Assembly (NCBI GenBank): GCA_947462335.1 | Contig: OX381704.1 | Span: 119,966,065-120,030,064, forward strand | Length of the DNA stretch: 64,000 nucleotides | Reading direction: 5' to 3' | Origin: Harmothoe impar | Taxonomy: Eukaryota; Annelida; Polychaeta; Phyllodocida; Polynoidae | In this document: in pieces, positions 11,985 to 51,102 of the stretch | Layout of the letters: each line of letters starts with the position of its first letter | How positions within the stretch are numbered: position 1 is the first letter of the stretch | The notes under the pieces: generated by a model | What the model was told of the DNA's origin: nothing | Databases searched by the model: none | What the model saw: the letters and a program-made list of their open reading frames with translations, nothing else | Translations under genes and position numbers: made by a program

Positions 11985-11985
11985 G

Positions 11986-15152: not shown

Positions 15153-15170
15153 AATAAAAACACTCAAGAG

Positions 15171-16268: not shown

Positions 16269-16270
16269 CA

Positions 16271-25199: not shown

Positions 25200-25770
25200 G
25201 GAGTGAGTGAGAGTTGGCATCAGTGGTAAGCTGGCAGTGAGTGAGATGCTGCGACAGAGATGAGGTGGGAGTGAGTGAGAGGTTGCAGCAGAGATGAGGT
25301 TGGGCTGAGTGAGAGGTTGGGGCAGAGATGAGGTAGGAGTGAGTGAGAGGTTGGGGCAGAGATGAGGTGGGAGTGAGTGAGAGGTTGCAGCAGAGATGAG
25401 GTGGGGCTGAGTGAGAGGTTGGGGCAGAGATGAGGTAGGAGTGAGTGAAAGGTTGGGGCAGAGATGAGGTGGGAGTGAGTGAGAGGTTGTGGCAGAGATG
25501 AGGTAGGAGTGAGTGAGAGGTTGTGGCAGAGATGAGGTAGGAGTAAGTGAGAGGTTGTGAGTAGTATATATTGTATCGGAACAGGACTATAGTTGATCCA
25601 AGGATATTGCTCAATCGATATGCAGCCAATCAGAGGCAGCAGAGATGAGGTGGGGCTGAGTGAGAGGTTGGGGCAGAGATGAGGTGGGAGTAAGTCAGAG
25701 GTTGGGGCAGAGATGAGGTAGGAGTGGGTGAGAGGTTGTGGCAGAGATAAGGTAGGAGTGTGTGTGTGAG
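25200..25770. repeat. Minisatellite, 34-bp unit, interrupted (YA)
   Basis: Units of the type gaggtaggagtgagtgagag plus gttggggcagagat are arrayed head to tail. Because 34 is not a multiple of three, three units give a 34-residue repeat, which explains the long Ser/Leu/Pro/His-rich frame on the minus strand. The array is interrupted at 25558-25635. Confidence 0.93.
25558..25635. mobile_element. 78-bp insertion in the minisatellite, shared with 30905-30986
   Basis: The sequence from gtagtatatattgtatcgg to gcagccaatcagagg lies inside the array in YA, is absent from YB, and matches the DNA at 30905-30986 with scattered changes. It ends with a CCAAT-containing ccaatcagagg. No target duplication or terminal inverted repeat is visible, so the insertion mechanism is unclear. 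Confidence 0.7.
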
Positions 25771-27148
25771 GTAGTGAGTGAGAGTGGCAGAAGGTGTGCA
25801 GCAGGACTTGTATATAACACAGTCAGTAGGATGAAACACACACTGCCTGCCCAGCCTCAGGTGAGACCCGTCCATCCCGACACACATCCACAACACACAC
25901 CTGCTAGGTAATCCTAACGACAGAGGTAAGTCATTTCCTTTATGACCACTGGTGTCTGTTTTAGTAGTTTAGGGATTTAAGCCAGTTTTTACTAATGTGA
26001 CCTTTTTTTATTCAGTATGTATAATTTTGTTTAACATTGGGTCTTTTGAATTATAAATTAATATTCTCTCAGTCTTCTTCTTAAGCGAAGGGTCATTCTT
26101 TTTCTTGGTCAGAGGCTTCCAATTTGACTGAAATTTCACCTCCTCAAATTTAAATATTTGATAGCAGTAAAGCCGCAAAGCATAGGTTTGTTTGAATCAT
26201 GTCTTATACCCCCTGCTATAAGACATTGTTTTACGTTCTTGAACGAGTAATGTGCTACAGTTTAATACATTAGGCCACTCAAAAAAATAAAATGGCTTCT
26301 TATCACCGCGCGCGTCATAAAAATCTGGTACTGAGGCAACATTTTTCTTCCTTTTTGCTAATTTTAGATAAAAAATATGACGAAAATGGAAAAAATATTT
26401 GCATATTTGTTATCAAATTAAAGTTTATAATGCCAGTAATGCAGTGGGATAGAAATAACCTATATTTTTCTTACTTTAAAAGATCAATCAATTCTTAACT
26501 ACTGAAATGTGAATTTTGGTCATTATCCTACATATTTGAAAAAAAAAACCTCGTCATATTTTTCAGACCACTTTCTTTTTTTAGTGGCCTTATGTTGGCA
26601 AAGCCACCCAATTCTGAGAGTCAGGCAGTGCACACCTTTTAGAATTGAGTTGACAGTGATGCTCACAAGTGTACAAAGAAAGTGAGATGATTAGCTCCAT
26701 CCGAGAGGTGGGAACAGGTTCATGGGTAAAGCAATGATGACAAGTGAGATGTAAATCATACGGGCGGTCCCTAATAATTGGGACAGAACTTAATCCATAT
26801 GTGCATACCTGTGATCTTTGCCTTAATTGACAGCTGTCTCACAGCTTCACACACCTCATTCGTAGTAAGAAGATAGGGCTGTGGCATGACCTGTGAGTGA
26901 GGACAGTATGTAGTGGCACCTAATTCGTGAAGCTGAGTTAACCCATTTTTGTCTATAGCCAATAACCTGGCTTTTCCTCGTAGTAGCCTCCTTCTCTACT
27001 CCCCTATATCTGTCCTTGCTGGCTCCTTGAAAATCCCTCATTAATTAGTGAGCACATGATGGTTTGGGCTTTGATATGTAACAACAACAACAACTGTGGT
27101 CATCGTGAAGCTTCAAAGCAGAGGTGGTACCAGTGCTGCATACTGCTT

Positions 27149-28718
27149 GCAAAGGCGATAGGAACTTCCTTTCCCTCTTGGACTTGAGACAAAGCCGCCC
27201 CTATACTCTCATTGCTCGCATCAGTGTCTAATATGAAATGACCATCCGCAGTGGGGTATTTCAACACCGGTGTTTCCACAAACAGCCGTTTAATCATTTC
27301 GAATGATTCCCCTTGTTCCTTCCCCCATGGGAACTTCTCCTTGCGTCTCCCCGGGGTCCAGTGCGACAGACATTGGATTGGATAACTTATCCGGGAATAT
27401 CCTGGTAAGAAATCTCTATAATAAGAACAAAATCCTAAAAAGGATCTCACTTCTTTCGGCCCCTTGGGAATGTTCGCCCCTTCCGTGTTGATCGAGTGTA
27501 GGACTCGATCCGTTCGTCCTAACGGCTCTCCGGGCCGCGCAAAGGCTGAACTACACTCGGTCAACATCTCCCTCAGGGCACTCCTATGTCCCTCTGTCTC
27601 TACTCCGGACCTTTCTATTAACGTTGCCAATCCTTCCTCAATTCCTTCACGGTTCGGGACTAGTCCGTTTCCTTTCTCAAAGCTACTGGTGACCGCTTCC
27701 GCGGATATCACTTCTCCCACTACAGTGCCTTTTTCCAAGTAGACGGTTTTCGAACCCGGGTTCGTTATGGGGGCTACCCCCCACGCTATATTTCCTATCA
27801 GGGTGTCGGCCGATTCCAATCCCTTCTTTCCCAACACTGTCACATAAGTTGGAAAACCCCCGGAACGCCCCTCTTCATCCTACTGGAGGCTATGAAGACA
27901 TCACATGCCAGACCGGGAGGTATTTTTACCGTCTGTACTACACTCGCTACACCACTAACTTCACGTGCCAGGCATTGTATCCTGTCTTTGTAGGGATGAT
28001 TTAATTTCAACACTCCAGTGACGGGATCCAATTTTGCCCCATATAAGGAAGCGAAATCCATCCCTTTGATCCCGTCGTCCTCAATCCCAGCAACTGTAGG
28101 GGAAATGATATATTCCCTACCGCCCACCAAGATGATCATACAAGTCCTACCAAACGTTCGTATCTTGCTCCCGTCAGCCGCACATGCATTTACCCTCGTT
28201 GTGAGGTCATCATCCATGCTCGACACCAGATCGAAGAATCTTTTTGACATAGCGCAGTGGCTAGCTCCGGTATCCAACAAAAATTCCCCCATTCTGCCGT
28301 TTACAGATACGGACACATACCATCTCTTTCCTCCCATCATCGAGGGATTACTTGCGAACGGTTTGACGTCGTCTGTCATGTCAAAATCGAATCCGAATCC
28401 TTTCAAATACTCCAGACACGGATGACCTTGGGGAAGGCGGACCCCCCCGATCCTGGATAGCTCCTCTATCCAACCTTCCTCTTTATTGGTGATCGGTTTC
28501 CCTTCTTTGCTCTCCCTGGCAATTGTCTCACCAATACCCCCAGCCCCACATGTTTTTGACTTATTAGCATTTCCCATGCTGCTGGGCGGATACATTACAG
28601 ACTCCTCAATCGCGTTTGTATGGATTGTACCCTGGCATACCTTATTCGGGGTCGTCAGTTTGCCTTCACGGACAACCCCCTCTAATTTTCCGTCTCCTCT
28701 CTCTTTCTTTCTCTCCAC
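27149..28718 (-). pseudogene. pol: Gypsy-2 pol remnant: protease, linker, deleted RT, start of RNase H
   Basis: The frame 27840-28718 has the aspartic protease (LLDTGASHCAMSKRFF, about 28265-28290). A frameshift near 27843 leads into 27149-27840. There the text runs from the pre-RT segment (LGRTDRVLHSINT) directly into the RT connection region (KGPKEVRSFLGFCSYYRDF) and then RNase H (DTDASNESIGAALSQ). Everything containing the RT catalytic YxDD is therefore absent. Pol overlaps gag and lies in the -1 frame, as in Gypsy-1. Confidence 0.88.
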
Positions 28719-30895
28719 ACAGGTTTATCCGCCGTACATTCGGCTGCGAAATGTCCGGTCTCCTGACATCTGAAACACTTCACCGTTGCTCTATCTAGCT
28801 TCGGTCGTTTCCGATAGTCCAACAATCCTTTCATTTCTTCCATCATGGCCATCAACCGCTTTTCGTTTTCGGATAACTCCACCACCAGGGGAGTAGGGGC
28901 CGTTTTAGAGCTTACCTCTACTGGCTTCTCTTTCTCAGGTGGCTTACTAACGTTTTTCTTCCACCGATTCTTTCTATCCCTCTTGTCGCCCCCGATGGCC
29001 GCAATTCTTTCTTCATCCGAACTTTCATTCGAATCACTCTCTTCGGGAGTGGCCGCATGTGCGGACGCCACTCTTTGGTTGGGTACGAACCCGGCAAGTA
29101 ATCGTTTCTTCTTCTCATGCTGAGATATAGCCAAAAAGAAGTCTACCATTGATGACCCTCGTCCCCATTCCTTCTGGACGAGTTCAGCATGGGACGGATC
29201 CCTCAGTCCTTTTATAAAGTAGGTGAATAGTTTATCTAAGAAATATTCGTCGTCACGCCTCCAATAAGGCCGGGCCTTTTGCAACAACCTTTGAAGTTCC
29301 AGACCGAACACTTTCGGAGACTCCTTTGGTTTTTGCGTCCGTACCTGGAACTCCGACCAAGGATCATTCGCTGACAACACACCAAAGATATGTGTGGCTG
29401 CTGCCACCAATTGGTCATAATTTCCGGATTCTCCATACGTCTCTCGCCAATCATCTACCGCTATTCGTCCCGGACCTTCACTCAACCATTTAATGAGGGG
29501 ACCCAAGGAAGCCTCCTTGTCCCACCCATAGTATCGGTTATCGTCACAGAAGTCTTGGTAGCTTTCCTTCCAATTCTCCCCATTGAAACGCCTGGGAGTA
29601 CGAACAGGCTTCCGGGCACTGTTATGACTCCATACCAGCCGATCCGACTGCCTCCGGCTCCATTCCATAATCTCAGACTCATCCTCCCGGGTCCGACTAC
29701 AACAGTCTATCCCCATCCCTTGTATACAAGGATCGGATTCCACTATCGCAGCAACCCTCGGGCCCATGGATGATCGTTTTGTCAACCTACGTGGGGCAGG
29801 GACCGGTCTTGGTGTCCCTCCCCTTGGATTGGGCTGGGTTCGATCAGGACTAGGGGGGTAGCCTCCATATGAACCGGGGTCCGGCACAGTCCCCATTCCT
29901 CCTCCGGGGTAAGACCCTGGGTTCGGAACACCACCCGATCCCCCGCTCTGAATTGATCCACCTCCTTCATTATAGGACTGACGTCCTTCGTTCGATCCGG
30001 CTCCGGGTAAGGGTGCCCGGTACTGGTAGGTTATATTATATATCGGTGGGGGTGGTACCGTATAGTTGTGTCCTGCCAGTGTATCATCCGCGAAGGGATG
30101 CAGAGAGCCGTAGCTATGATTCATTCGTTTGGGTGGGGCCTCGCTCGTAATATCATGGGTACCAGAGATCTCTTTCTCCTCCGTTCCCCCATAAGTTACC
30201 TTACGGTCGGCCTCATTCGGGGCAGTTCTCCCTTGGTTTCGTGCATACTTACCGTCCGAAACGACCCCCCGTGTTTCGATTGGATCCACGGTGGTTAAGA
30301 TCGGACTAGGGGTGGATGCGACGTGCTTAGGTAGCTTGCCTCCCTCATTCGTCGGTTCTCGGCTACGAGCCTCTTCTCCTTTGCGGATTTCATCCATCTG
30401 ACTCTGGTAGGCCAAATAGGTGTCATTCATTTCTTCTTTCTTTTTCTGAATAATTTCGAGGTCAGCCTTCATCTCAATTCGGGCTTGCTTCAAAGCCTCT
30501 CGTTCTTGCTCGAACTGTTCCCTCAAGGCCTGGCCGGACTTTTCTTCTTTCGAATAGTCCGCCTTGATTTTCTTTACCCTCTGGGACTGTCGCTCGATCT
30601 CGCTCTCATAGGTATCCCGAAGATCACGACTTCTTCGAACCTCTTCCCTATCTTTCTGGAGTTGCGCCTGCTCCTCTGTCAGATTGTGTTGGACACACTT
30701 AACCTTTTGTTGAACCTTGGCTAACTGAGAGGTTTCGAGTGCCAACTGTTCACTGATATATTTTCTATCCGCCTGTATTCTGGCTTTCACTTCTTTCAAT
30801 TCCTCTGTTTCTTTCTGGTTCTGGGCGATTACCCTCGCTTTTTCGTCGGCCAGACGGATCAAATCCTCATTCATGGCAATATACCGATCCCTCAT
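28682..30895 (-). CDS. gag: Gypsy-2 gag: coiled coil, capsid-like domain, CCHC knuckle (open frame)
   Basis: An uninterrupted frame of about 737 codons from the ATG at 30895. It has a highly charged coiled coil (about residues 1-175), then a Pro/Gly/Tyr-rich linker with repeated PNPGSYPGG/PDPGSYGG-like units. A capsid-like helical region follows (GWDKEASLGPLIKWLSEGPG ... FIKGLRDPSHAELVQ). Next is an acidic Ser-rich spacer and a zinc knuckle CFRCQETGHFAAEC near the end. It parallels Gypsy-1 gag domain by domain. The true N-terminus may be missing, because the reading frame runs into unrelated 78-bp sequence at 30913. It is retained as an open frame although the element is dead. Confidence 0.85.
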   Translation of the reverse strand: MRDRYIAMNEDLIRLADEKARVIAQNQKETEELKEVKARIQADRKYISEQLALETSQLAKVQQKVKCVQHNLTEEQAQLQKDREEVRRSRDLRDTYESEIERQSQRVKKIKADYSKEEKSGQALREQFEQEREALKQARIEMKADLEIIQKKKEEMNDTYLAYQSQMDEIRKGEEARSREPTNEGGKLPKHVASTPSPILTTVDPIETRGVVSDGKYARNQGRTAPNEADRKVTYGGTEEKEISGTHDITSEAPPKRMNHSYGSLHPFADDTLAGHNYTVPPPPIYNITYQYRAPLPGAGSNEGRQSYNEGGGSIQSGGSGGVPNPGSYPGGGMGTVPDPGSYGGYPPSPDRTQPNPRGGTPRPVPAPRRLTKRSSMGPRVAAIVESDPCIQGMGIDCCSRTREDESEIMEWSRRQSDRLVWSHNSARKPVRTPRRFNGENWKESYQDFCDDNRYYGWDKEASLGPLIKWLSEGPGRIAVDDWRETYGESGNYDQLVAAATHIFGVLSANDPWSEFQVRTQKPKESPKVFGLELQRLLQKARPYWRRDDEYFLDKLFTYFIKGLRDPSHAELVQKEWGRGSSMVDFFLAISQHEKKKRLLAGFVPNQRVASAHAATPEESDSNESSDEERIAAIGGDKRDRKNRWKKNVSKPPEKEKPVEVSSKTAPTPLVVELSENEKRLMAMMEEMKGLLDYRKRPKLDRATVKCFRCQETGHFAAECTADKPVWRERKREETEN

Positions 30896-30964
30896 TTCCT
30901 CCTCCTCTGAGTAGTATAGTATGTATCGGAACGGGACTATAGTTAAGTACTGTTTATTACTCAA

Positions 30965-31395
30965 TCGACATGCAGCCAATCAGAGGCCTCCATTTGGTCA
31001 CGTGACCGGAAGTGACCTACTTAGGGGATTAGTGGTGCATTCTGGGTAACCCTGCAGCCAATCAGAGGCCACCATTTGGTCACGTGACCGGAAGTGACCT
31101 ACTTAGGGGATTAGTGGTGCATTCTGGGTAACCTACTGACCTACTTAGGGGACCGGAAGTGACGTCATATGACTTAATTTAGGATCACGTGACCGGAAGT
31201 GACCTGATGAGTCACGTGAGCGGAAGTGACGTCACATGACCTAATGGCCGACCGGAAGTGAGTGACCTCATTGAGGATCACGTGACCGGAAGTGACTTGA
31301 TTGATCACGTGAGCGGAAGAAGAAGTTTTTTGTTTAGGAAGTGAGGGTCTTTAGGATCACGTGACTGGAAGCGACGTCGTCACATGAGTGACGCT
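30965..31395. promoter_or_regulatory. Tandem array of CCAAT / E-box / ETS / CRE / ZNF143-like motifs
   Basis: A ~79-bp unit is present twice (about 30970-31048 and 31051-31132). Each copy contains ccaatcag (NF-Y), gtcacgtgac (E-box), accggaagtgac (ETS) and gcattctgggtaa (ZNF143/SBF-like). Further degenerate units up to 31390 repeat the core tcacgtgaccggaagtgac, some fused to tgacgtca (CRE, e.g. about 31152-31166 and 31213-31227). All are well-known elements of animal TATA-less promoters. The array sits between the Gypsy-2 gag (reading away on the minus strand) and the left end of the virus-like element. Confidence 0.65.
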
Positions 31396-31454
31396 TTAAG
31401 AGACTGCGCGACTTACTAGTAAAAGAAGACGTATGAAAATAAAAACACAACAAT
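31355..31454 (+). repeat. Left inverted terminal repeat of virus-like element
   Basis: The stretch acttactagtaaaagaagac through gtatgaaaataaaaacacaa (31411-31450) is the reverse complement of 39281-39321 with few differences. Outside it, ctttaagag with atcacgtg...ctgga also matches the right side. The left copy lacks a ~40-base AT segment present on the right. Confidence 0.85.
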
Positions 31455-31455
31455 A

Positions 31456-31542
31456 TTTTATTTTATTTTTTTAATTTTTTTTTTTTTCAATCTTGATAAA
31501 CACTCTATTTTTGAAAAGATGCACACGCTTATTTTTTTTTTT
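31456..31542. other. A/T-rich tail between left ITR and PolB stop
   Basis: Mostly homopolymeric T and A runs, with no further structure seen. It probably includes the PolB 3' untranslated region. Confidence 0.5.
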
Positions 31543-34500
31543 TCATATCTCTAAAGGACTCGTTGTCACACCGTCAGAATGCACGCGACGCTTATAATAC
31601 AAGTAGCGCACGCCGTCTTTCTCTATGGTGTAGGTGACCATTTTGTTTCGCACCACTTTGAAGTTTCTATTTACAGCAATGAGAGTTTTTCGTTGGTGAA
31701 GAACATCCAAGAAGTCGTCTGGTTCCTGAGGGTTTTGTTTCTTCTGTACGCCTTTTGCACTCCATTTTTTGGATTTTCTTTCACCGGTGTCGCTGACTCG
31801 ATCGTAGCAAATGTAAGTCTTAGGGTTGAGACTTAGGATCCCGTCACCTTCCCACTCCGCTTTCATAAGCCCCGAAGTTCTCAGATCGTGAAGGTACCGT
31901 CTCTCACAACATCCGCCGGGCGGCGGACACCATTCTCGCACTCTTTCCGTTTTTGTCTTCACGAAAAGCTCTAAGTGATCGTCGCACACCGCTGTCGGAA
32001 GCCACTTTCGTTTCTCTCTGAAGTACGTCTCTCTCAGGCGAGGTTTGACTAGGTCATCCAACGTGTCACCGCTGAGAGCCATGTAAAGACTGTCGGTGTC
32101 CATTTGACAAAGGGCATAATCGCGCCGATCGACGAATCTATCCAAGAAGTCGTATGTGAACTCTAACATTTTCAACTTCGCGTACTGGTATACCATGAAC
32201 CCTATTTGAATAGGGAGGTTGTTGTTGACTGTTTTCGGTTGTAGTTCGACTTCAAACAGATCGGAACTCAACTCGGACGCCTTTTTGAAGCGCCACGAAT
32301 TGGCCAATAGTTCGAACTTCCGACTGTCAGTGTATCTCACCGCCGTGTGTTTTTCTTTGTTGCAGATTGTTTTACCGTACGTAGCGTTTCACATTAACTT
32401 GTAACAGTCTGACAGAATTTTCTCGTTCTCGTTCACGTCGCCACGTCTTCGCGCCGCCGTTACTTCGTCCGCGAAACCGGCAAAGGAGCGTTTAGGTAGG
32501 TATTCTACCACCAGCTGCACTTTGGTGACTATCAAACCGTGCTCTAAATACCACTTGAGAAGCGGCGTTCCCAAGAGAATATTTTTTCCGTGGTAACTCC
32601 CTATCAGACATCTCTGAGGCGTGTTCAACAGCTTTTCTTCCTGCGCAAAGTCTGACATGTGAGGTCCTATGTCCGATTTTGAAACGGTCGCGTTCTTGAA
32701 AACGGGGGTCATTTCTTCGAAGTAGTCTCGTAGGTGAGGCGGCGTAGTGATGTCCACTTGAACTAAACCGAACATTTTCTCCTCTTTCACAGCGGAAAGG
32801 ATGTCGCTCTCGCTCATCGCGTTTCGAGACACTTTCAAAGCGTCAACCTTCCAGCGTTGTTGGGAGGCCTTGACCCGCTCATCTTGACGCTTCATCTCTC
32901 GCCATTCGCACTCCCACACGACGACCAGCTTGTGACCTAGCGCTTTCAAGTAAGCGCTTACTCTGGTCGTTCTGTCGCGTCTCTCCTCTCTCAGTGAAGC
33001 GCACTGATATCGGTGCGACGGTATGCACTCGTGAGCGTGGAACCAACACCCGTGAAACTGGAAAACCGTATTAGAGGCCGTGTGAAACCCGTCCACGCGA
33101 ATTCTCCGACAGCCTACAACCATCTCGCCGCCGTTCAAAGCGTGGCGCAGTTTCACGTCGCGGTCGTGCTCTACGAAGCGTAACCACTCCAAAGCGCTGT
33201 GAGAGTTTCTTTGCCTAATTTCGGGCTTGAACTCGGTCTCGGGCCGTCTCACCGCGTAATAGCCCGTGCAGTGCGCTTCGCTCATGCAGCGCAAGTACAG
33301 AGAGTTAGCGTCTAGTCCTAGGATGTGTTGGCACGGTCTCGCTTCTTCGCCGTACTTGTGCTCCCTTATCCGCGTGGTGCCCTTCTCGTGAAATCTATGG
33401 AAGATGATGGAAGGACCGCCGACTAGATTTTCTTTGATCAGAGCGTGGAGGACGGCGTCGGACTGGGGGAACGTTGTGAACGCGTCTTCTAGGTTTTGGA
33501 AGAGGAACCGTAAAGTCAAACCGGCGAGAGAAACTCCGTCTTTCAACATGTCAATGCCGCGATCTTGGAAAAATTTAGCGTGATTTTTCAGAGCTTCTAT
33601 GAAAGGTTTGACGTCTTTGTTGTTGTAGTGGATCAAGTAGTCTTCCATAGTTTGCATCTTCTCGTCGGACCAAACTTTCTGACATGCGGCGTAGTCGGAT
33701 TCGGACATTTTGACGCCCGTCAGCTCGCTGTCGAAAGCCGATCTCGGTGGCAGCGTTCTGTTTGCCAGTTTCCTGGTAGACGTCATCCATTCGTAAGGAA
33801 AGTGACCTTTCTCTTCGTTCCTGGTGAAAGCTCGCAAATAGGTCGCGTAGTTGTAACCGGGTGCCAAATAGTTGACTACGTCCAAGAAAACCGTGTGCTG
33901 TGTGTAAACCGCCAAGTATTGATTGCTTCTCTTTATGACGCTGAATTCTTGGTTTCTTCGGTCTCCGGAGGCGAAGAACGAGTGAAGGCGTATTTTGATC
34001 AGGTTCAAGTCGTAACGCCCCGAGTTGAAGCCCACGACTGGAGCTTGACGGATGTATCTCAGAAGACGCTTCTTCAGTTGAACTAACGGGTGTCTGGTCT
34101 GAGCCGCAGCGAAGCCGCCTGGAGAAGGGGTGAACGTCGCCTCCTCCAGCAGGAGAGCTTCACCTATCGCCGCATCTAACTTCGCTAAGGTCGGTCGGTA
34201 AAGTTCTAGCACAGCTTCCCCGATGACTTTGGCGTTCTCGTTTATGTGATTTAAAACTCGGTCCAACAAGGGGTCGGAATCTGCGTCGGATTCTCTGACG
34301 AAGCAGACGGACCCCTCCCACCCCGGAAAGTCGGATGCGACGCTAGCCGACAAAGGGACGTGATCCCACAGCAGGGACACGTGTTCCGTCGACGGTTCTT
34401 TGCACGGTCTGAAGAAAGCCTTGAAATCGAAGGCGATCTTGTAAGGGTAGATTCCGGAATGTCCGTCGGGGGGAAAAATGGAGAAGTCTGCTAGCGCTTC

Positions 34501-35667
34501 GAAAATCGTTCTCGAATTTTGGTAGATGCCGCCTACGTAGCGCAACTTGACTTGTCGGCAAGAGGAAAGCTGGTTCCTGTGTCTCTTCAGCAAGAACTCG
34601 GTGGTGAACGCCGCCTTACACTTGCAACATTCGTATATGCCCGCGTACGCGTTGAAGTCCGTGACGAGAGAGACGTGCAAACCGCCTTTCGCCGTCAGGT
34701 GTAGGTTGACTTTACCTCGGGCGGCCAGAGTTCTGGAAGGCGGTCTGATCAGAGTAACGCGTCTTCTCAACTTCCGCCCCGGCACTTGACGCGACGCGGT
34801 GTAAACCGCTATCTGTACGTCAAACAAGTTCTCTAACGCGGGTAAGTCGCGGATGTTCAGACCCGGAAAGGATTCAGGTGTGGCAGCGGGACAGAACTGA
34901 CGTAACAAATCTGAAGCGCGCTTGCTGGTGTTGTATAAGTGAAAGGAAATGCAGCGGAAGATGCAGAGGTTGTCCTTGTTGGGAAAATCTAACACGCCGC
35001 TTCTCTTTCCAACTCGACCGGCCTGAGTGATCCTACCGCCTATGGGGAATTCCCCCGGTCCCATGTAAACGCAAATGTTCAAATTGGTAGGAAAAAGAAC
35101 GTGCCACTTGGTGTCAGCGTCGCAAAGTTTCCGTACTTCCTCGCAAGCGACGGTGTTTTCCATCTTTGAGAGGAGCTCTTCCAAAGTTTCTGAATTAGTT
35201 ATAGTAGGGAGCGGTTGTATGAGAGTTGCGTTGTTCTGGGAGGCGTGAAAGTAGCGCAGTTTGCTCTTGTCTTCTCTGTGTTGTAAGAGTAAGCCTACCG
35301 AGAAACCCACTTTGTTTCTGAATCTTTGTGTCAAGTGAATGCGACGCATAGTATCTACAGCGTCACTCAACTCGCCGGTTGGTAGCTTGAAGTTTGTTAC
35401 ACTCACGCGAGTCCCGTGCATCCTGACGCCCGTTTGTATCGCAGGCCAATTCGCCGTGAACGTTTCCTCCCCGTTCGGTACAGCACATATGCGCGGAGGG
35501 ACGGTCACCCCGTCCAGAGATTCGCGTCGACAGGCGATCTTTCGGCAATCGCCTTCGCCGCATAGAGGGCAAAACTTAGGTACTACTCTACAATTTTCTA
35601 CGTGTCTCTCGTGGTTGTACGGTCTTTTAAACATTTTGAAACACTTTTCGCATACGTACTGTGTCAT
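31543..35667 (-). pseudogene. Protein-primed-type family B DNA polymerase, one in-frame stop
   Basis: A single frame of about 1,374 codons from the ATG at 35667, interrupted only by a TGA at 32389. N-terminus: C2H2-like finger (residues about 6-26), then a globular region with DNLCIFRCISFHLY, then a second finger (CCKCKAAF...H..). The exonuclease part has motif I as FDFKAFF (Lys where the family has the second acidic residue), motif II GFNSGRYDLN and motif III YNNKD. Polymerase motifs: A (LDANSLY, about 33310-33330), then a Polinton-type insert with HGCWFHAHECIPSH and VVVWECEW, B (Lys...Asn..Tyr-Gly, split by the TGA), and C (MDTDSLY, about 32090-32105). The family copies linear genomes using a protein primer. 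The in-frame stop disables this copy; the rest of the frame is intact, so inactivation looks recent or readthrough must occur. Confidence 0.92.
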
Positions 35668-35813
35668 GTTTTTTTTTCACTCAGTTACCAACTACTTAGC
35701 CGTCTAACTATCTATCTATCTATCAATCCATCTGTCTATCTATCTATCTATTTATCTTTCTGTCTGCTGTCTGTGTTTCCGTCTGTCTGTCTCATACAGC
35801 GTACGTCAAACGC

Positions 35814-35845
<32 letters not shown>

Positions 35846-35860
35846 AGCGTTGAGCGTCTC
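35668..35860. repeat. Microsatellites between PolB and PC4-like gene
   Basis: (TCTA)n at about 35707-35756 and (GT)n at about 35814-35837. They separate two minus-strand genes by under 200 bp. Confidence 0.9.
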
Positions 35861-37002
35861 TCATTCCGAATCTATGCCGAGATATTTCAGAATGATCTCT
35901 GTTTTGTCATCCAACTCTTTGAGCGCTCTGGCGGACAGCGTCACTCCCTGCTGTGTGGGTTTTTTGTCAGGACCTTCGTACTTGCGCACGTGGACGAGGT
36001 TCTTACCGCTGTAGTAGCTCACAGCTGCGTACACTTCGCCCTCCTCATCCAGCACTGCGAACCAGGGGGTGTGATTAGGTTTTCCTTGCGCGGCCGCTGT
36101 GTCGCGTATGCGCACCACTGCGCGGATATCGGCGATGCGTGCTATTAGCTCGCGCAGCGCGTCGGCCGTGAAGTGCACTCGCTTGCTTCTGGTCAGAGAC
36201 GCCTCTTTCACCTGGCCGTCTTTTGTGTAGCGCGGCCTCCTAGACAGTCTAGCCACGTCCTCCCAGATCTCCAGCGTCAAAGCTCCGTCTAAGCAGAACT
36301 CTAACCCGAGAAGACGGGAGAAGGTTTTCTCTGCTTCTTCTCGTCCATCTCGTTCTTTTTCTTGTATTTTTCTCTTCTTACTAGGCCTTGTTGTTCTGGA
36401 ACTCACCTTAGAACGTTTCACACCCGCAGGATGAGTAACACCATCAGCGTGAGCTGAATCAGCAGCAGAACCGATAGCAGGAGCAGCGTCAGCGCTGGTG
36501 GTATCCGAGGCCTCGTTGTTGGAACAGCGCAGCCACACGCCGTCGGTGCTGAGTGTAGCGGTAGAAGATGAAGCGCCGCCGCCCTCGTAAGGTGGCGGTG
36601 AGGGCAGTCGCCACGGACCGGACGGGACGCTACTAGTGGAAGTGAGGTCGAAAGGTCGAAGAGGGAAGCCGAAAAACGTACCGCCCACCCCTTTCCCTTC
36701 GGGTTGTTCGTACGCCTCGTCGTCAGCGTCGTTCTCTGTCTCACCCTGTTGCTGCTGCTCCTCCTCCTCCTCCTCCTCTTCTTCTCGGTTTAGGGGCTGA
36801 GTGTCCGAATAGCTGTCACTCTCAGCGCGAGCGGCGTCGAGGGCGTCGGTCGATGTAGTGGTGGAGGAGAGGGGCTGTGCAACGTGCGGCAGGTCATCAA
36901 AGTCATCAACAGTAGTGGGGAGGTAAAAACCCGGTTGCCAGTACTGCGCTGTGCCAGGAGCGTTGTCGTCAGTAGTAGTAGCGGTAGCAGCAGGTGCAGC
37001 AG

Positions 37003-37042
<40 letters not shown>

Positions 37043-37238
37043 CGCAACAGTAGCAGGCGCAGCAGCCTCAGCAGGCGCAGCAGTAGCAGGCGCAGCGGTA
37101 GCAGGTGCAGCAGCAGCAGCAGCAGCCGCAGCAGGCGGGGCGGCAGTAGCAGCGGCAGCGCGCTTAGCAGCAACGTGTACCGTCGCGAGTGTAACAACGT
37201 CGCTAGCACGACGACTACTACCAGTAGTACTACTACTA

Positions 37239-37276
<38 letters not shown>

Positions 37277-37453
37277 GCTACTACTACTACTACTACTGCC
37301 GCGAGCGCTCGCTACAGCGGGAGGGTGATAAGACCAAGCGGCTGCGGCGGTAGTCTCATTTTCAGTAGCAAGAGGAGGCACTGACGCTAAACGAGCGCTG
37401 TTCCGCGTAGTCTTCTTGTTCTTGGACGGCGCTAGGTGTTGTCTTTTGCTCAT
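35861..37453 (-). CDS. Low-complexity protein with two tandem PC4-like ssDNA-binding domains
   Basis: The ATG at 37453 (MSKRQHLAPSK) gives about 530 residues; a longer frame begins with a non-ATG codon and is not preferred. The first ~380 residues are low complexity: poly-Ser, a long Ala/Pro run encoded by GCT/GCC-type triplet repeats, a Glu/Gln run, and a basic cluster (RTTRPSKKRKIQEKER). The last ~145 residues read as two copies of a PC4 (transcriptional coactivator p15) fold. The first is around GALTLEIWEDV...TKDGQVK...HFTADALRELIARI, the second around GEVYAAVSYYSGKNLVHVRK...PTQQGVTLSARALKELDDK. PC4 binds single-stranded DNA as a dimer, so a tandem pair could act as a monomeric equivalent. 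A role in replication or late transcription of the element is inferred. Confidence 0.7.
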
Positions 37454-38467
37454 GGTGGTGACTGTAGAGAGCAGCAAAAGAATGAGTGAGTGAATGGAGG
37501 TTTCCAGACCCCTTATATACGCCTTCTCGCTTCTAGAGCTAAGCTACTTACTGACCCTGTTCAGCTGCCGCCGGCTGGCCGGCGGCCATTCACAAAGAGA
37601 AACAAAAGACATAAGGCATGGCGTTTTCAGCTGGATCCCTTTCCCCCCTTTTGAGAGATCGACTGTCATGAGCTAAGCCGCTTACCACCCTGTTCAGCAA
37701 TTCAACGCGCATTAGCTGTATAAAGGATTAAGCGGTTGCTGCCGTCGACTGACCGGCGGCCATTCACAAAGACATAAGGTATGACGTTTTCAGCTGGATC
37801 CCTTTCCCCTCTTTTTTTTTTGAGGGATCCACTGTCATGAGCTAAGCCACTTACCACCCTGTTCAGCCATTCAGCGCGCGTTAGCTGTATAAAGGATTAA
37901 CGGTGATGAGCTTAGAGTGTGTATACAAAAAAAAACTACAGGAGGCGTGTGGCGTGAAGCAGGACCCCCCTAAGACGAACGTGTCTGTCTGTGAGTAGAG
38001 GCGTGTGCATGTGGTGAGTGACTTAAGTGTAAGACAAAAAAAAAATCACCACCTCCTGCCGTGGTGAGTAGACCGGGCCGGCCAGGCGGCGGCCGGCTAG
38101 TTCAATAGGGAGGGGTGACAGCTGACTGAGGCTGTGCATGAAAAAAATCCGATTTTCACCTGACCTCTGACGTTTGTTACAATGAATGTCAGAGGGAGGG
38201 AGACGTCCTCAGGTAGGGGGTAGGAGGTAAGGCTATGGATGAGGAAGAAACACCGTTTTCAGCTGGTCTCCACGGATAGCGACGACACACCCCTCGTCAT
38301 CTAAGCTCTTAAGGAGCGGAGCGGTTGAAAAAGCGTCATGCGGACAGGTCGCTACACAGCTGGAGTGCTGTTGGAAATGGGATTAAACTCCCTCTGTATA
38401 AAAAGCTCTGATTTCTGTTGGAAAAAAACCATATCGCCTCTGACCACAGTAACGTCTACTACCACCA

Positions 38468-38520
<53 letters not shown>

Positions 38521-38539
38521 ACCGCCAAGACGAGACGAG
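37454..38539. promoter_or_regulatory. Divergent intergenic region with 2.3 direct repeats (~170 bp)
   Basis: Between the two divergent genes a unit is repeated at about 37540-37680, 37680-37850 and 37850-37910. It contains gccggcggccattcacaaag, tttcagctggatccctttcc, tgtcatgagctaagcc and cttaccaccctgttcagc. Within it are ttagctgtataaagga (TATA-like; 37715-37730 and 37885-37900) and a GC-rich ggccggcc palindrome near 38085. Pure CCG/CCA triplets follow at 38460-38525, just before the death-fold ATG. It is likely a bidirectional promoter and possibly a replication or packaging region. Confidence 0.55.
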
Positions 38540-39280
38540 ATGGCTCAAGCTATTCCACTTTCAAGCTCGCCTTCACCGCCTTGTCCACCTGAAAAAAAGT
38601 TAATGCAGCTTGACGACGTGAGACGCGCGAGGCAGACCGATGGGGAGAACAGAGAGGTAGGACAGCGGCGGTTAGCCTATAGCGACGCCTTGCTTCGTCA
38701 ACTAGGTAAAGAGTTGAGCGGCTGTTGGAGAGAGTTGGGCAGTAGCTTAAAAGTTACCGCCGCCCGTATGGATGCTCTAGTAGAGCGCAGTGTCAAGACA
38801 CCGGAGGAGCTGTGTACGGCGATGTTCCGAGTCTGGTGGGGTGAAACCCCGCATCGTCATAGATGGGGAGAGCTCGGTCGCGTCTTCACCCGCATTAGAC
38901 GCGTGGAACTGTTGGCTCAGTGGATGTCCCTTCTCCACAGACAGGGGTTGGATTTCGAAAACCCCGACTCGCGCGCGATGCATAAGCACTTGGGCACCCT
39001 CGGCAGACGTCTAGGTAGCAGGTGGAAAGAGGTGGGGGACCATTTAAAATTGTCGCCTGAGAGGTTAGATAAGATCGCTGAAGAATGTGAATACGGAGGA
39101 AGTCCCGCTGAGTGGGCCTTCCGAGTGTTGAAAATGTGGCAAGATGAAGCTGACGGTGCCGGCGGTACACCTTTTGAACTCCTTCGAGTGTTGACTGAGG
39201 ACATGGGAAAGTTTGACCTCGGCATCGCGATATTACTTGACTTTATCAAGCAAGAAACAACGAGAACGACGGACATGTGA
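38540..39280 (+). CDS. Tandem death-domain-like protein
   Basis: The ATG at 38540 gives 246 residues and an intact frame. After a short Ser/Pro leader it contains two death-fold repeats. The first is at about residues 45-115 (LRQLGKELSGCWRELGSSLK ... MFRVWW ... WGELGRVF), the second at about 150-240 (LGRRLGSRWKEVGDHLKLSP ... AFRVLKMWQDEA ... ELLRVLTEDMGKFDLGIAIL). The spacing of 'LG..W.ELG..L', 'ML..W' and a final helix with L..L matches the six-helix death domain of FADD, UNC5 and ankyrins. The family mediates homotypic interactions in apoptosis and innate signalling, so a captured host modulator is the natural inference. Its stop codon abuts the right inverted repeat. Confidence 0.75.
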   Translation: MAQAIPLSSSPSPPCPPEKKLMQLDDVRRARQTDGENREVGQRRLAYSDALLRQLGKELSGCWRELGSSLKVTAARMDALVERSVKTPEELCTAMFRVWWGETPHRHRWGELGRVFTRIRRVELLAQWMSLLHRQGLDFENPDSRAMHKHLGTLGRRLGSRWKEVGDHLKLSPERLDKIAEECEYGGSPAEWAFRVLKMWQDEADGAGGTPFELLRVLTEDMGKFDLGIAILLDFIKQETTRTTDM

Positions 39281-39426
39281 ATTGTTGTGTTTTATTTTCA
39301 TACGTCTTCTTTATTAGTAAGTAAAAAAAAAAAAAAATAAAATAAATATCATAACAATAAACGTGCGCCCTCTTAAAGTGTCACTTCCTCCAGTCGCAGC
39401 TGATCGCCTCATCGAAGCACGTGATA
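39281..39426 (-). repeat. Right inverted terminal repeat of virus-like element
   Basis: It begins immediately after the stop codon of the death-fold gene. The first 41 bases match the left repeat in reverse complement. A poly(A)/AT insertion (about 39322-39360) follows, then gcgccctcttaaagtgtcac and gcacgtgat, which match the outer part of the left repeat. An AATAAA within it could serve the death-fold transcript. Confidence 0.82.
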
Positions 39427-39441
39427 AACAAAAAAAAACGA

Positions 39442-39483
39442 AGAGACACGCTTCTTCCTCTCGAGAGGAAGAAGCGTGTCTCT
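39442..39483. repeat. Perfect 42-bp palindrome
   Basis: From agagacacgcttc to gaagcgtgtctct, centred on tctcgaga, the two arms are exact reverse complements with no loop. It lies just outside the right ITR. It could be a resolved hairpin end or a replication signal of the element; no counterpart exists on the left. Confidence 0.9.
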
Positions 39484-40189: not shown

Positions 40190-42345
40190 GCATTATACAT
40201 CTATGATGAACACCTCTACCACCATAACTCTTATTGCTGTAACAACTAATCTTCCCATAGTCCCCTTAAGAGAGAGAAGACTGCACAAATAACTACTTCA
40301 TTTATACAGGACCCAATCTAGCCCAAGTTATAAATATTTACTTTCATGTCCATACAAAAGGATGTCACAGTACAAAGGTGTGATTAGTCAGTCCACTGTG
40401 CGTGTACTGACCATGGTGTGACCACTTACCTGAGTCCCCCCCCCTTCCTCTCTCCATCTATTCTTCTACATCTATTAACAGGAACTATTCATTGTGTATA
40501 TGGAGAGTTGGTCTACATCTGTAAGGAGGGCAGGAAAGTCCTGAGATAACGTAGGAGTGAGTGAGAGTTGGCAGCAGTGGTAAGCTGGCAGTGAGTGAGA
40601 TGCTGCGTCAGAGTTAAGCTGGGAGGGAGTGAGAGGTTGGGGCAGAGATGAGGTAGGAGTGAGTGAGAGGTTGTGGCAGAGATGAGGTAGGAGTAAGTGA
40701 GAGGTTGTGGCAGAGATGAGGTAGGAGTGGGTGAGAGGTTGTGGCAGAGATGAGGTAGGAGTAAGTGAGAGGTTGTGGCAGAGATGAGGTAGGAGTGAGT
40801 GAGAGGTTGGGGCAGAGATGAGCTGGGAGTGAGTGAGAGGTTGGGGCAGAGATAAGGTGGGAGTGAGTGAGAGGTTGTGGCAGAGATGAGGTAGGAGAGT
40901 GAGAGGTTGTGGCAGAGATGATGTAGGAGTGATTGAGAGGTTGCAGCAGAGATGAGGTAGGAGTCTGTGTGTGTGAGGTAGTGAGTGAGAGTGGCAGAAG
41001 GTGTGCAGCAGGACTAGTATGTAACACAGTCAGTAGGGGGGACGCACACACTGCCTGCCCAGCCTCAGGTGAGACCGGTCCATCCCGACACACATCCACA
41101 ACACACACCTGCTAGGTCATCCTAAAGACAGAGGTAAGTCATTTCCTTTATGACCACTGGTGTCTGTTTTAGTAGTTTAGGGATTTAAGCCAGTTTTCTT
41201 TTATTCAGTATGTATAATTTTGTTCAACATTGGGTCTTTTGAATCATAAATTAATATTCTGTCAGTCTTCTTCTTAAGGGAAGGGTCATTCTTTTTCTTG
41301 GTCAGAGGCTTCCAATTTGACTGAAATTTCACTTCCTCATGAAAGGACTCAAATTTAAATATTTGATAGCAGTAAAGCCGCATTGCCTAGGTTTGTTTGA
41401 ATCATGTCTTATACCCCCTGCCATAAGACATTGTTGTTACGTTCTTGAACGAGTAATGTACTACAGTTTAATACATTAGGCCACTCAAAAAAATAAAATG
41501 GCTTCTTATCACCGCGTGCATCATAAAAATCTGGTACTGAGGCAAATTTTTTCTTCCTTTTTGCTAATTTTAGATGAAAAATATGACGAAAATGGACAAA
41601 TTTTGGCATATTTGTTATCAAATTAAAGTTTATAATGCCAGTAATGCAGTGGGATAGAAATAACTTATATTTTTATTACTTTAAAAGATCAATCAACTCT
41701 TAACTACTGAAATGTGAATTTTGGTCATTATCCTACATATTTAAAAAACCTTTCTCATCATATTTTTCAGACCACTTTCTTTTTTTAGTTGCCTTATGTC
41801 GGCAAAGCCACCCAATTCTGAGAGTCAGGCAATGCACACCTTTCAGAATTGAGTTGACAGTGATGCTCACAAATGTCCAAAGAAAGTGAGATGATTAGCT
41901 CCATCGGAGAGGTGGGAACAGGTTCATGGGTAAAGCAATAATGACAAGTGAGATGTAAATCATACGGACGGTCCCCAATAATTGGGACAGAACTTAATCC
42001 ATATGTGCATACCTGTGATCTTTGCCTTAATTGACAGCTGTCTCACAGCTTCACACACCTCATTCGTAGTAAGAAGATAGGGCTGTGGGATGACCTGTGA
42101 GTGAGGACAGTATGTAGTGGCACCTAATTCCTGAAGCTGAGTTAACCCATTTTTGTCTATAGCCAATAACCTGGCTTTTCCTCGTAGTAGCCTCCTTCTC
42201 TACTCCCCCATATCTCTCCTTGCTGGCTCCTTGAAAATCCCTAATTAATTAGTGAGCACAGGATGGTTCGGGCTTTAATATGTAAAAACAACAACTGTGG
42301 TCAACGTGAAGCTTCAATGCAGAGGTGGTACCAGTGCTGCATACT
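40190..42345. repeat. Duplicated block YB
   Basis: The direct partner of 24830-27148, with numerous substitutions and small indels. It lacks the 78-bp insertion and differs in minisatellite copy number. It ends in unrelated sequence exactly where YA is cut by Gypsy-2 (gctgcatactgc). Confidence 0.9.
40555..40985. repeat. Minisatellite, 34-bp unit (YB)
   Basis: The same unit as at 25200-25770 but uninterrupted, with one unit shortened near 40890. The open frame on the minus strand is a product of the repeat. Confidence 0.92.
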
Positions 42346-42902
42346 GCAAAGGGTCTGCATGATACACCAATGCAGCAGCAGCTTACTCTAGGAAGGGGGG
42401 CGGCAACATTTGTCAGCCAAGGCAAAAAGCAGATAGTGTTACTGCCCAGTGGTCACAGACCACTTGTTAAGCGCAAATTTAGCTCTCTTCAGGGCTTAAT
42501 AAAGAGCTTATTGAGTGCTGCTTTTGTGAGGTATGCCCACTTGGTGTATGGCCATAGAACCCCCGCCCCCATTAGAAATAAATTTGTCCAAAATTCTAGT
42601 AGCATTACAGACTGATTTGTACTGCCGGATTGACATATTGTAAATAAATATTCACAACCTTATACTGTATCCAAACTGTTGTTGACTACTTTCTTCATAT
42701 AGATATCTTATCATCTTAACAAAGTTACAGTCCTCTACACAAGCAAGCCTTCTTTTGTAAAGTCTCTATAAAGTCTTAGTCCTATATATAAAATATATTG
42801 CAAGGTGTGACAACTATCCCAGGCCCTAACCATCCATGGTGTCAGTAAGGTGTACAGGTCTCTCTGATGCTAGAATACAGGGGAAAAAAGGTGCTATAAT
42901 CT
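42346..42902. other. Spacer with a possible degraded coding fragment
   Basis: A 96-codon plus-strand frame at 42325-42615 (containing KFSSLQGLIKSLLSAAFVRY) has a normal residue composition, but I do not recognise it and it begins in the tail of block YB. It could be a relic of a mobile-element ORF. Nothing else is seen here. Confidence 0.3.
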
Positions 42903-43430: not shown

Positions 43431-43808
43431 TTAACTAATGCGAGTGGTGTGTGCATAGCTAATAAGTTGTTTATAAGTGACCTATACTTGTATATATATA
43501 TGTGTCTCTTAGTTCCATGTGGTGGGTAGTGGTGCTGTCCTCAATGTCTCTCTGCCACATGTACATACATTTCAGCCAGTCGCTTTGGATGATTTCTTTC
43601 ATCAAACAATGTTGTCTATACATATATACCCTCAATATTGTCCAATATTTACCATATTTTTGTTCCAGTTCTTCAGTACAGGAATAGTTATACTTTATTC
43701 AAACCTTTTGTTTTATATACTTTCTTAAGCGGCCTTGTATGAAAACATATGATTATATTTCTAATAGCTGTTAATTTTGTTGCTTTACAGAATAAAAACA
43801 CTCAAGAA

Positions 43809-44906
43809 ATGGAAGTAACCACTACTTTGTTGCCGATTAACATCACAGACACCGCAGACAACGGAACTACTGATGGAATAGCAGTAACAGCTACTTTGTT
43901 GCCAGACAACATCACAGACAACGGTACAACTGATGGAATGCTGATCTTGATGAACAATGACACTGCTACCACAGAACCTCAACTAGCAACAGCCTTCATG
44001 GCCTTCTACTTCACCATGAGATTCTTATTCTCTGGGTTTGCCATATTTGGTAATACACTCACCATCATGGCAGTGGTTCGCTTTAAAAGACTCCGAACCA
44101 ACACAAACTTCCTGATCTGTAGCCTGGCTATTGCTGATATGTTAGGTGCTATGTTAAGCCCACTGGCTCTGACCCATTACATTCTGTCTGACAAACCAGC
44201 TTATGTACCGATCTGCCTCATTGACAAAATACTGGGTCTAATTTCAGTTGGTGCCAATCTCTTCAGCATTCTGGGGATTGCTGTAGACCGTTACTTGTTC
44301 ATCGCCCATGGGCTGCACTACCCAATGTGGGTCACTTCCACCAAGACCTATACCATCATTGCTATCATCTGGGTTTTTATAACATCTGAAATATCTGCTA
44401 TCATCCTGTTGTTTCATCACCTTGACATTGGTGTGCAATGCACAGTATCTGCTTTTCTCCCAAAGCAGGTTACTAATACCATTGTGATGCCACAACTGTA
44501 CCTGTTAGCCACTTTCACAATTGTATTTTATGTAGCAATTGGTAGGATAGCCTACAAGCAGGGTCGCGCTATTGCAGCACTCAACCAGCCATTCGATACC
44601 CATGAGGCTGCCCTTAACCGACAGCACAAAAAGATAGCTAAGATGATGTGCATAGTATTGGGCACCTACTTTATATGTTACATCACACGCATTTTTGCCT
44701 TCATTATGCTTGGTTCTTCAAAACACATTTTCTGGCAGTATTTTGAAAAGGTGGCAATAATCATCTACCGGGCTAACCATTGGCTGAATCCTATTATTTA
44801 TGCTTGGAGGGATAAAGATTTTAGAATAGCTTTCCGCAGACTCCTTCATATGAGTCCAAGCAATGCTGTTAACCCAATAGTCCATGAGCTGGGTGGTCCA
44901 GCTTAG
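43809..44906 (+). CDS. Class A G-protein-coupled receptor, copy B
   Basis: The predicted 365 residues are identical to copy A at 15171-16268, and I found no nucleotide difference in the coding exon by eye. Differences resume immediately upstream (ctcaagaaATG versus ctcaagagATG; acceptor ttacag versus ttccag). In this copy an upstream in-frame ATG at 43749 lies in the predicted intron and is not the likely start. Like copy A, the stop codon is followed two bases later by the G-rich array. Motifs: DRY, NPIIY, five N-glycosylation sequons. The ligand is unknown. Confidence 0.9.
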   Translation: MEVTTTLLPINITDTADNGTTDGIAVTATLLPDNITDNGTTDGMLILMNNDTATTEPQLATAFMAFYFTMRFLFSGFAIFGNTLTIMAVVRFKRLRTNTNFLICSLAIADMLGAMLSPLALTHYILSDKPAYVPICLIDKILGLISVGANLFSILGIAVDRYLFIAHGLHYPMWVTSTKTYTIIAIIWVFITSEISAIILLFHHLDIGVQCTVSAFLPKQVTNTIVMPQLYLLATFTIVFYVAIGRIAYKQGRAIAALNQPFDTHEAALNRQHKKIAKMMCIVLGTYFICYITRIFAFIMLGSSKHIFWQYFEKVAIIIYRANHWLNPIIYAWRDKDFRIAFRRLLHMSPSNAVNPIVHELGGPA

Positions 44907-44908
44907 CA

Positions 44909-51051: not shown

Positions 51052-51102
51052 GTGACGTACATGATCGGTGGACGTACATGATCGGCGGACGTACATGATC
51101 GG
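51052..51102 (+). repeat. Left terminal repeat cluster (3 monomers)
   Basis: Three direct copies of GACGTACATGATCGG with short spacers. A fourth copy lies at 51235-51251. They are in inverted orientation relative to the right cluster, and likely nuclease or transposase binding sites. Confidence 0.85.

What the first reader, a model, noticed from the sequence alone, without database searches (positions are those of the whole stretch)
31355..39430. Minimal ITR element encoding protein-primed PolB plus tandem PC4-like and tandem death-fold proteins
Seen: inverted repeats at both ends, a long family B polymerase frame with exonuclease and palm motifs, and two accessory genes divergent from a repeat-rich spacer. 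Known: Maverick/Polintons, adintoviruses and bidnaviruses use this polymerase class, but carry integrase, capsid, ATPase or protease genes that I cannot find here. Inference: this is either a new small lineage of animal virus or linear transposon, or a deletion derivative that keeps only replication and host-interaction genes. The polymerase and two duplicated-domain proteins in ~8 kb make it the best candidate for an undescribed system in the window.
Basis: partly seen in the sequence, partly recalled or inferred. Interest (0 to 1): 0.92.

Follow-up and report, generated by a model that had tools for sequence, protein, structure and literature searches.

The report
Capsid-free animal linear replicon, endogenous copy
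Between two inverted repeats, this 8-kb piece of what is likely an animal genome holds a virus-type DNA polymerase gene (broken in this copy), a predicted single-stranded-DNA-binding protein and a two-death-domain protein, with no detectable shell or integrase gene; it is likely a captured copy of a small linear replicon that would copy its own DNA, a kind known to us only from fungi, plants and giant viruses.

Summary
An 8.15-kb unit (31316-39462) has inverted repeats at both ends (score 70; best of 500 shuffles 40); the right end lies in a 42-bp palindrome. It encodes a PolB with a Vsr-like insertion and a probable vOTU motif (broken by one in-frame stop), a PC4/Pur-alpha-like protein and a two-death-domain protein. 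No integrase, capsid, ATPase or protease was recognised. Twenty-eight PolB relatives form one side of a supported branch; 27 of them lie on contigs of 20 kb or less, against 7 of 91 others. Relatives of the accessory proteins were few (death protein 3, PC4-like 1), at identities that parallel the nearest PolB relatives; this favours a small conserved gene set over a one-off deletion. The Vsr insertion is the published mark of group I Mavericks/Polintons, so the polymerase type is not new; the cassette without integrase or capsid, and its accessory genes, look new. Not settled: the gene content of relatives' contigs; the whole-genome search did not complete (15 tries). A deleted Maverick or one segment of a multipartite virus remains possible.

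The parts
31316..31454 (+). left inverted terminal repeat (139 bp); its outer end abuts a tandem array with E-box and ETS type motifs (motif names recalled)
   Evidence: local alignment with the reverse complement of 39281-39460, score 70 against a maximum of 40 in 500 shuffles; 23-nt perfect core 31422-31444
31543..35667 (-). family B DNA polymerase gene of protein-primed type (zinc finger, terminal-protein region by position, vOTU-like motif, exonuclease, palm with Vsr-like insertion); one frame, 35667-31543, cut by an in-frame stop at 32389-32391
   Evidence: ORFs; stop codon; relatives, identities; motifs; Pfam DNA_pol_B_2 3.7e-7 in the close relative P0001 (6 of 26 relatives at E up to 0.1) and Vsr in 19 of 26; Vsr structures 3.7e-6
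35861..37453 (-). 530-aa protein from the ATG: low-complexity N-terminal part, C-terminal 150 aa with one PC4 domain and a likely second one in Pur-alpha-like arrangement; predicted single-stranded-DNA-binding protein
37478..38539 (.). spacer between the two divergent accessory genes, with a duplicated 169-bp unit (37564-37904) and TATAAA at 37719, 37888 and 38397; predicted promoter region
   Evidence: repeats; motif positions
38540..39280 (+). 246-aa protein with two death domains and no other recognised domain; its stop codon abuts the right inverted repeat
   Evidence: Pfam Death 2.6e-7, two stretches; halves 0.0035 and 0.0027; relatives 99, 77, 55%; weak profile matches to FADD (best 0.0023) and RIPK1 (best 0.033) death domains
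39281..39462 (-). right inverted terminal repeat, with an A-rich insertion relative to the left one
   Evidence: AATAAA on the plus strand at 39336, 39341, 39356
39442..39483 (.). perfect 42-bp palindrome whose centre lies at the outer end of the inverted repeat; the only palindrome of 22 bp or more in the window that is not made of (AT)n runs

Best explanation
This is likely an endogenous copy, with a broken polymerase gene, of a small linear DNA replicon that would replicate by protein priming, codes for no recognisable capsid or integrase, and probably descends from group I Maverick/Polinton-type viruses. Shown here: inverted repeats at both ends, the palindrome at the right end, the polymerase with catalytic residues conserved in relatives, the Vsr-like insertion, one PC4 domain, two death domains, and no recognisable capsid, ATPase, protease or integrase gene. 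Inferred steps: the N-terminal region of PolB acts as terminal protein and primes synthesis at the inverted repeats. The vOTU-like domain (Cys235/His331 in relatives) then cuts it from the polymerase. PolB copies the 8-10 kb molecule by strand displacement, while the PC4/Pur-alpha-like protein coats the displaced strand and may activate transcription. The death-domain protein binds host death-domain adaptors as a decoy and keeps the cell alive. Entry into the chromosome was probably by host end-joining or by another element's integrase, since no integrase is encoded and no secure target-site duplication is seen. Transfer between cells, if any, would need a helper.
For: Inverted repeats beyond chance. 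The palindrome's centre lies at the repeat end, as expected if a terminus was folded back or joined head to head. PolB relatives P0001-P0028 form one side of a branch with SH-aLRT 100 against 27 others in a 55-row tree; P0001, 98% identical, stood in for the window's broken PolB. Of these 28, 27 lie on contigs of 20 kb or less and 7 fall in 9.3-10.1 kb; of 91 others, 7 lie on contigs of 20 kb or less and 1 falls in 9.0-10.2 kb. I read this as small or free molecules. Accessory proteins have relatives at identities that parallel PolB: 98/99%; 77/72/77%; 64/55%. Residues of Exo I and II and motifs A and B are invariant in 24 of 24 relatives, motif C in 23 of 24 with one gap. No other gene recognised in the unit. 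Published precedent: cytoplasmic linear plasmids derive from (proto)polintons by loss of the morphogenetic module, and transpovirons arose by loss of the structural module (PMC11071308, section 11).
Against: No contig of a relative could be read, so it is not shown that relatives lack capsid and integrase genes. Against 28 PolB relatives, only 3 relatives of the death protein and 1 of the PC4-like protein were found (the search needs shared 5-residue words), so the three-gene set is supported only for the nearest group, and no listed PolB hit shares a contig length with an accessory hit. Seven of the 28 lie on 12.7-17.6 kb contigs, long enough for a full adintovirus (13.3-14.6 kb in PMC8363768). 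Contigs of 4-5 kb are probably transcripts, so contig length partly reflects the kind of source. P0001's contig (9882 bp) is longer than the 8.15 kb seen here, so this copy may lack some sequence. Pfam has no OTU match in any of 26 relatives at E up to 0.1; the terminal-protein region was not tested. The death-domain model failed (mean pLDDT 41.8).
Confidence: 0.42

Rival explanations
1. A deletion derivative of a capsid-bearing group I Maverick or adintovirus: the inverted repeats and replication genes stayed, the morphogenetic module and integrase were lost in this copy or in a recently amplified family.
For: The PolB has the Vsr insertion that marks group I Mavericks. Seven of 28 relatives lie on 12.7-17.6 kb contigs, the size of full adintoviruses. 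Accessory relatives were found at three levels of divergence only. This copy is decayed.
Against: The three genes are tightly packed and no remnant of another gene was recognised. Relatives of the death protein exist at three levels and of the PC4-like protein at one, paralleling PolB. Seven of 28 relatives' contigs cluster at 9.3-10.1 kb.
Confidence: 0.27
2. One integrated segment of a multipartite linear DNA virus, as in the Bidnaviridae/Vesanto-virus group, with capsid genes on other segments that are not in this window.
For: Bidnaviruses combine such a PolB with separate segments; Vesanto virus may have up to twelve segments (candidates of 3.3-5.8 kb with inverted terminal repeats), three of them with PolB homologues (PMC8363768, passages read). 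The unit ends in a palindrome.
Against: Bidnavirid vOTU lacks its active-site residues (PMC11071308), whereas Cys235 and His331 are invariant in 24 of 24 relatives here, if my motif assignment is right. No parvovirus-type NS1 or capsid in the 25 window ORFs scanned. The unit is larger than the reported segments.
Confidence: 0.18
3. A satellite or hyperparasite that is packaged and integrated by a helper adintovirus or Maverick sharing its ends, an animal analogue of transpovirons.
For: The same anatomy as the best explanation; lack of a recognised integrase and capsid needs an outside source if it spreads between cells. More distant PolB relatives occur in records named after animals (Branchiostoma, Exaiptasia, Styela, Pomacea; 4 of the 120 listed).
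Against: No helper with matching ends was found; IMG/VR scans with PolB and the death protein were empty, and terminal sequences were not searched there.
Confidence: 0.1
4. Host genes co-opted from an old viral insertion, kept for the host's own use.
For: The two accessory frames are open in a copy whose polymerase frame is cut. Short relative contigs (763-2726 bp for the death protein) could be transcripts.
Against: An uninterrupted PolB relative is 98% identical to this copy, so the stop looks recent; all three genes have relatives at parallel levels.
Confidence: 0.03

Closest known systems
Maverick/Polinton, group I (Vsr-containing PolB)
   Same: PolB with Vsr-like insertion and vOTU-like motif, inverted terminal repeats, chromosomal copy
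   Different: no recognised rve integrase, capsid proteins, FtsK ATPase or Ulp1-type protease; 8 kb instead of about 15-20 kb (recalled); has PC4/Pur-like and double death-domain proteins
Adintoviruses
   Same: PolB with N-terminal OTU-like domain; host-directed accessory genes (anti-apoptotic homologues and/or candidate oncogenes reported in most mammal-associated species, PMC11071296, passage read)
   Different: defined by a hexon and an integrase with chromodomain, neither recognised here
Bidnaviridae and Vesanto virus
   Same: protein-primed PolB on a small linear molecule with terminal repeats, capsid on the same or other segments
   Different: their vOTU has lost its active-site residues; here the likely pair is conserved in relatives; no NS1 or capsid found
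Yeast cytoplasmic linear plasmids, fungal/plant mitochondrial linear plasmids, transpovirons
   Same: capsid-free linear replicons whose replication protein descends from viruses of this phylum (PMC11071308)
   Different: hosts are fungi, plants or giant viruses; no death-domain gene there (recalled); PolB here is of the group I Maverick type
Pur-alpha and PC4/Sub1
   Same: strand-strand-strand-strand-helix module, in the model arranged in tandem as in Pur-alpha repeats I-II
   Different: no sequence match to Pur-alpha found; long low-complexity N-terminal part; found beside a viral PolB

Membership tests
Maverick/Polinton (group I) | Vsr-like insertion in PolB | tested here: met
   Vsr structures 3.7e-6 to 5.5e-6, Pfam Vsr in 19 of 26 relatives at E up to 0.1; criterion from PMC10328495
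Maverick/Polinton (group I) | PolB with N-terminal vOTU carrying its Cys/His pair | tested here: inconclusive
   D232/C235 and H331 in 24 of 24 aligned relatives, but assigned by a recalled motif; no Pfam OTU match in 26 relatives; domain order from PMC11071308
Maverick/Polinton (group I) | terminal-protein domain and TPR1/TPR2 of protein-primed polymerases | not tested
Maverick/Polinton (group I) | inverted terminal repeats | tested here: met
Maverick/Polinton (group I) | rve integrase, capsid proteins, FtsK ATPase, Ulp1 protease between the repeats | tested here: not met
   four main frames and ten smaller ORFs: no such domain; strongly diverged genes would be missed, but every ORF over 122 aa in the unit is one of the three genes or overlaps one
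Maverick/Polinton (group I) | 6-bp target-site duplication (recalled) | tested here: inconclusive
   GATTGA at 31299 and 39485, but the left one lies inside a tandem array and not at the repeat end
Adintoviruses | hexon and integrase with chromodomain alongside OTU-bearing PolB | tested here: not met
   definition from PMC11071296
Bidnaviridae | PolB with inactivated vOTU | tested here: inconclusive
   likely active-site residues conserved in 24 of 24, which speaks against; the assignment rests on a recalled motif; criterion from PMC11071308
Bidnaviridae | parvovirus-type NS1 and capsid in the genome, possibly on other segments | not testable with these tools
   no access to other contigs of the same source; the genome search unanswered (15 calls)
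Capsid-free linear plasmids (cytoplasmic type) | polinton-type pPolB with loss of the morphogenetic module | tested here: met
   for this copy only; gene content of relatives unknown
Capsid-free linear plasmids (cytoplasmic type) | extrachromosomal linear DNA with 5'-bound terminal protein | not testable with these tools
   needs wet-lab work; the window copy is chromosomal

The most novel reading that the evidence does not exclude
Animals carry their own class of capsid-free, protein-primed linear DNA replicons of 8-10 kb. They replicate with a Maverick-type polymerase and a Pur-alpha/PC4-like strand-coating protein, and protect the host cell with a double death-domain decoy: an animal counterpart of yeast killer-type linear plasmids and transpovirons.
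Probability: 0.3. Interest if true: 0.88.

Novelty: new variant of a known kind. Interest (0 to 1): 0.66.

Why it matters
If relatives share the gene set, animal genomes hold a lineage that left the virus way of life but kept virus-type DNA replication, as happened in fungi (cytoplasmic linear plasmids) and in giant-virus systems (transpovirons). That would make testable how a selfish linear DNA persists in an animal nucleus without capsid or integrase, and whether a death-domain decoy replaces the virion as its means of persistence. No paper in the held library (open-licence PubMed Central only) holds polinton with death domain, polinton with PC4, or adintovirus with death domain (0 papers each).

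Tried and rejected
Relatives with DNA context: scans of IMG/VR with the larger PolB piece, with PolB alignments and with the death protein gave none; the PC4-like protein and the terminal repeats were not scanned there. The one scan of prokaryote genomes gave one 3450-bp contaminant contig (L001) in a tubeworm symbiont MAG with a 28% PolB fragment; its upstream ORF told nothing.

Whole-genome search for other copies: the genome search did not complete (15 calls).

Host: not named by any search; no Rfam family at gathering score in the window. Reading the Vsr domain as something new was rejected after PMC10328495. PMC12721341 (passages) describes helicase-PolB fusions, not this. A first self-comparison script hid part of its pairs by a fault in my filter and was redone. 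A target-site duplication GATTGA was considered and not accepted.
Full report
WHAT IS THERE. Between 31316 and 39462 lies a unit bounded by inverted repeats (left 31316-31454, right 39281-39460; score 70 against at most 40 in 500 dinucleotide shuffles of the left side). The outer end of the right repeat sits at the centre of a perfect 42-bp palindrome (39442-39483), the only palindrome of 22 bp or more in the window that is not made of (AT)n runs. The homology of the left repeat stops within a few bases of the position matching that centre, where the left flank begins: a tandem array with TCACGTGA and CCGGAAGTGAC motifs. This is what one expects if the element's true end is the palindrome's centre and the right end was folded back or joined head to head before capture (inference).

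GENES. Three genes fill the unit. PolB runs on the minus strand from 35667; one in-frame stop (32389-32391) splits it inside motif B into 1092 and 281 residues that are 98.3 and 97.9% identical to P0001, an uninterrupted 1375-aa relative. Its Exo I motif also carries a substitution at an acidic residue that is invariant in 24 of 24 relatives, so this copy's polymerase is expected to be dead (inference). Next on the same strand is a 530-aa protein (ATG at 37453) whose last 77 residues match Pfam PC4 (7.4e-6, just above the cut-off). On the plus strand, 38540-39280 encodes 246 residues with two death domains (2.6e-7 whole; halves 0.0035 and 0.0027, below the cut-off). Among solved structures a profile of it is nearest to FADD (best 0.0023), one further chain named GPX62 (0.0027) and RIPK1 (best 0.033), all weak. 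Its stop codon abuts the right repeat. The genes are read outward, two leftward and one rightward, with AATAAA signals near the ends and a duplicated 169-bp unit with TATAAA boxes in the spacer between the two divergent genes. Ten of the smaller ORFs have no Pfam domain; some low-complexity frames overlapping the PC4-like gene were not scanned.

POLYMERASE TYPE. A search of 5.8 billion proteins with the larger piece gave 288 relatives (the 120 best listed; only the 7992 candidates sharing most words were scored). The first 26 were aligned. Their profile matches Vsr endonuclease structures (3.7e-6). Pfam Vsr matches 19 of 26 at E up to 0.1 (best 6.6e-4), DNA_pol_B_2 6 of 26, and OTU none. In a hand-picked set of 24 of the 120, the vOTU-like D232/C235/H331, Exo I and II residues and motifs A and B are invariant; motif C is present in 23 with one gap; of ten Vsr positions eight are invariant, H873 is kept in 22 and H880 in 20 (the roles of Vsr and OTU residues are recalled). 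PMC11071308 (passages and sections 6 and 11 read) describes TP-vOTU-Exo-palm polymerases for polintons, with vOTU inactivated in bidnavirids and adenovirids. PMC10328495 (two passages read) gives the roughly 140-aa Vsr insertion as the mark of group I Mavericks. So the polymerase is of group I Maverick type; the vOTU is likely, and the terminal-protein region was not tested.

A SEPARATE GROUP. In a 55-row tree (P0001-P0041 and every sixth of the rest, of 120; quick method, SH-aLRT only; long branches and odd letter make-up flagged, P0001 among the latter; the window's broken PolB was not a row), P0001-P0028 are one side of a branch with support 100. Of these 28, 27 lie on contigs of 20 kb or less (median 9.45 kb, seven between 9.3 and 10.1 kb). 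Of 91 others with a contig length, 7 do (median 92 kb) (one listed row, P0064, has no length). I read this as smaller or free molecules, with two cautions: contigs of 4-5 kb may be transcripts, and seven contigs of 12.7-17.6 kb are long enough for a full adintovirus (13.3-14.6 kb, PMC8363768, passages read).

CO-DIVERGENCE. The death protein has three relatives (99, 77, 55%) and the PC4-like protein one (72%). These levels parallel the three nearest PolB relatives (98, 77, 64%). The records carry no organism names, so that they come from the same elements is inferred. No contig length is shared between a listed PolB hit and an accessory hit, so linkage on one contig is not shown. For the other 25 PolB relatives no accessory relative was found; the search sees only proteins that share short exact words, so this is weak evidence against, but it limits the claim to the nearest group.

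MECHANISM. The most likely reading is a protein-primed linear replicon: a PolB with its own terminal protein for priming and copying, a strand-coating PC4/Pur-like protein, and a death-domain decoy that keeps the host cell alive. No capsid and no integrase of its own was recognised. Loss of the morphogenetic module from polinton-type ancestors is the published origin of cytoplasmic linear plasmids, so the route is known, but no animal case is known to me (recalled). Searches of the held library found no paper with polinton and death domain, polinton and PC4 or adintovirus and death domain.

LIMITS. No other copy in the genome could be looked for. The four IMG/VR scans found no relative. The deleted-Maverick and multipartite-segment rivals stay open, and reading the 9-10 kb contigs would settle most of it.

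Noticed in passing
51054-59811: A second element with inverted ends: 536-column inverted repeat 51423-51954 / 58990-59514 (75.6%) with inverted 16-17-bp tandem arrays outside it (51054-51103, 59731-59811), enclosing four plus-strand frames (285, 406, 433, 293 codons) without Pfam match at 0.001.
   Followed up: partly
14852-19786 and 43495-48345: A 4.9-kb segment present twice at 96.3% identity, each with a class A GPCR gene in one 387-codon frame and a long (GGGTG)n array behind it.
   Followed up: partly
24833-27146 and 40191-42347: Another duplicated segment (86.3%) with a 34-bp tandem array, on either side of the block that holds the finding.
   Followed up: no
1-12423: A Ty3/gypsy-type retroelement on the minus strand with 307-bp direct terminal repeats at 96.7% (1-307, 12118-12423) and protease, RNase H and integrase domains.
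   Followed up: partly
27103-30979: A gypsy-type gag-protease-RNase H fragment left of the element, apparently cut near 27146 where the duplicated segment begins.
   Followed up: partly
30971-31319: Tandem array dense in TCACGTGA (E-box type), CCGGAAGTGAC (ETS type) and TGACGTCA (CRE type) motifs, abutting the left inverted repeat (motif names recalled). It looks like a promoter or LTR.
   Followed up: no
60517-63708: A 1064-codon open frame on the minus strand with Asp-rich 30- and 37-codon tandem repeats and no Pfam match.
   Followed up: no
L001:1564-3450: A contig filed as a bacterial symbiont of a tubeworm carries a PolB fragment with zinc finger and vOTU-like motif (28% to the query), probably host contamination.
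   Followed up: partly
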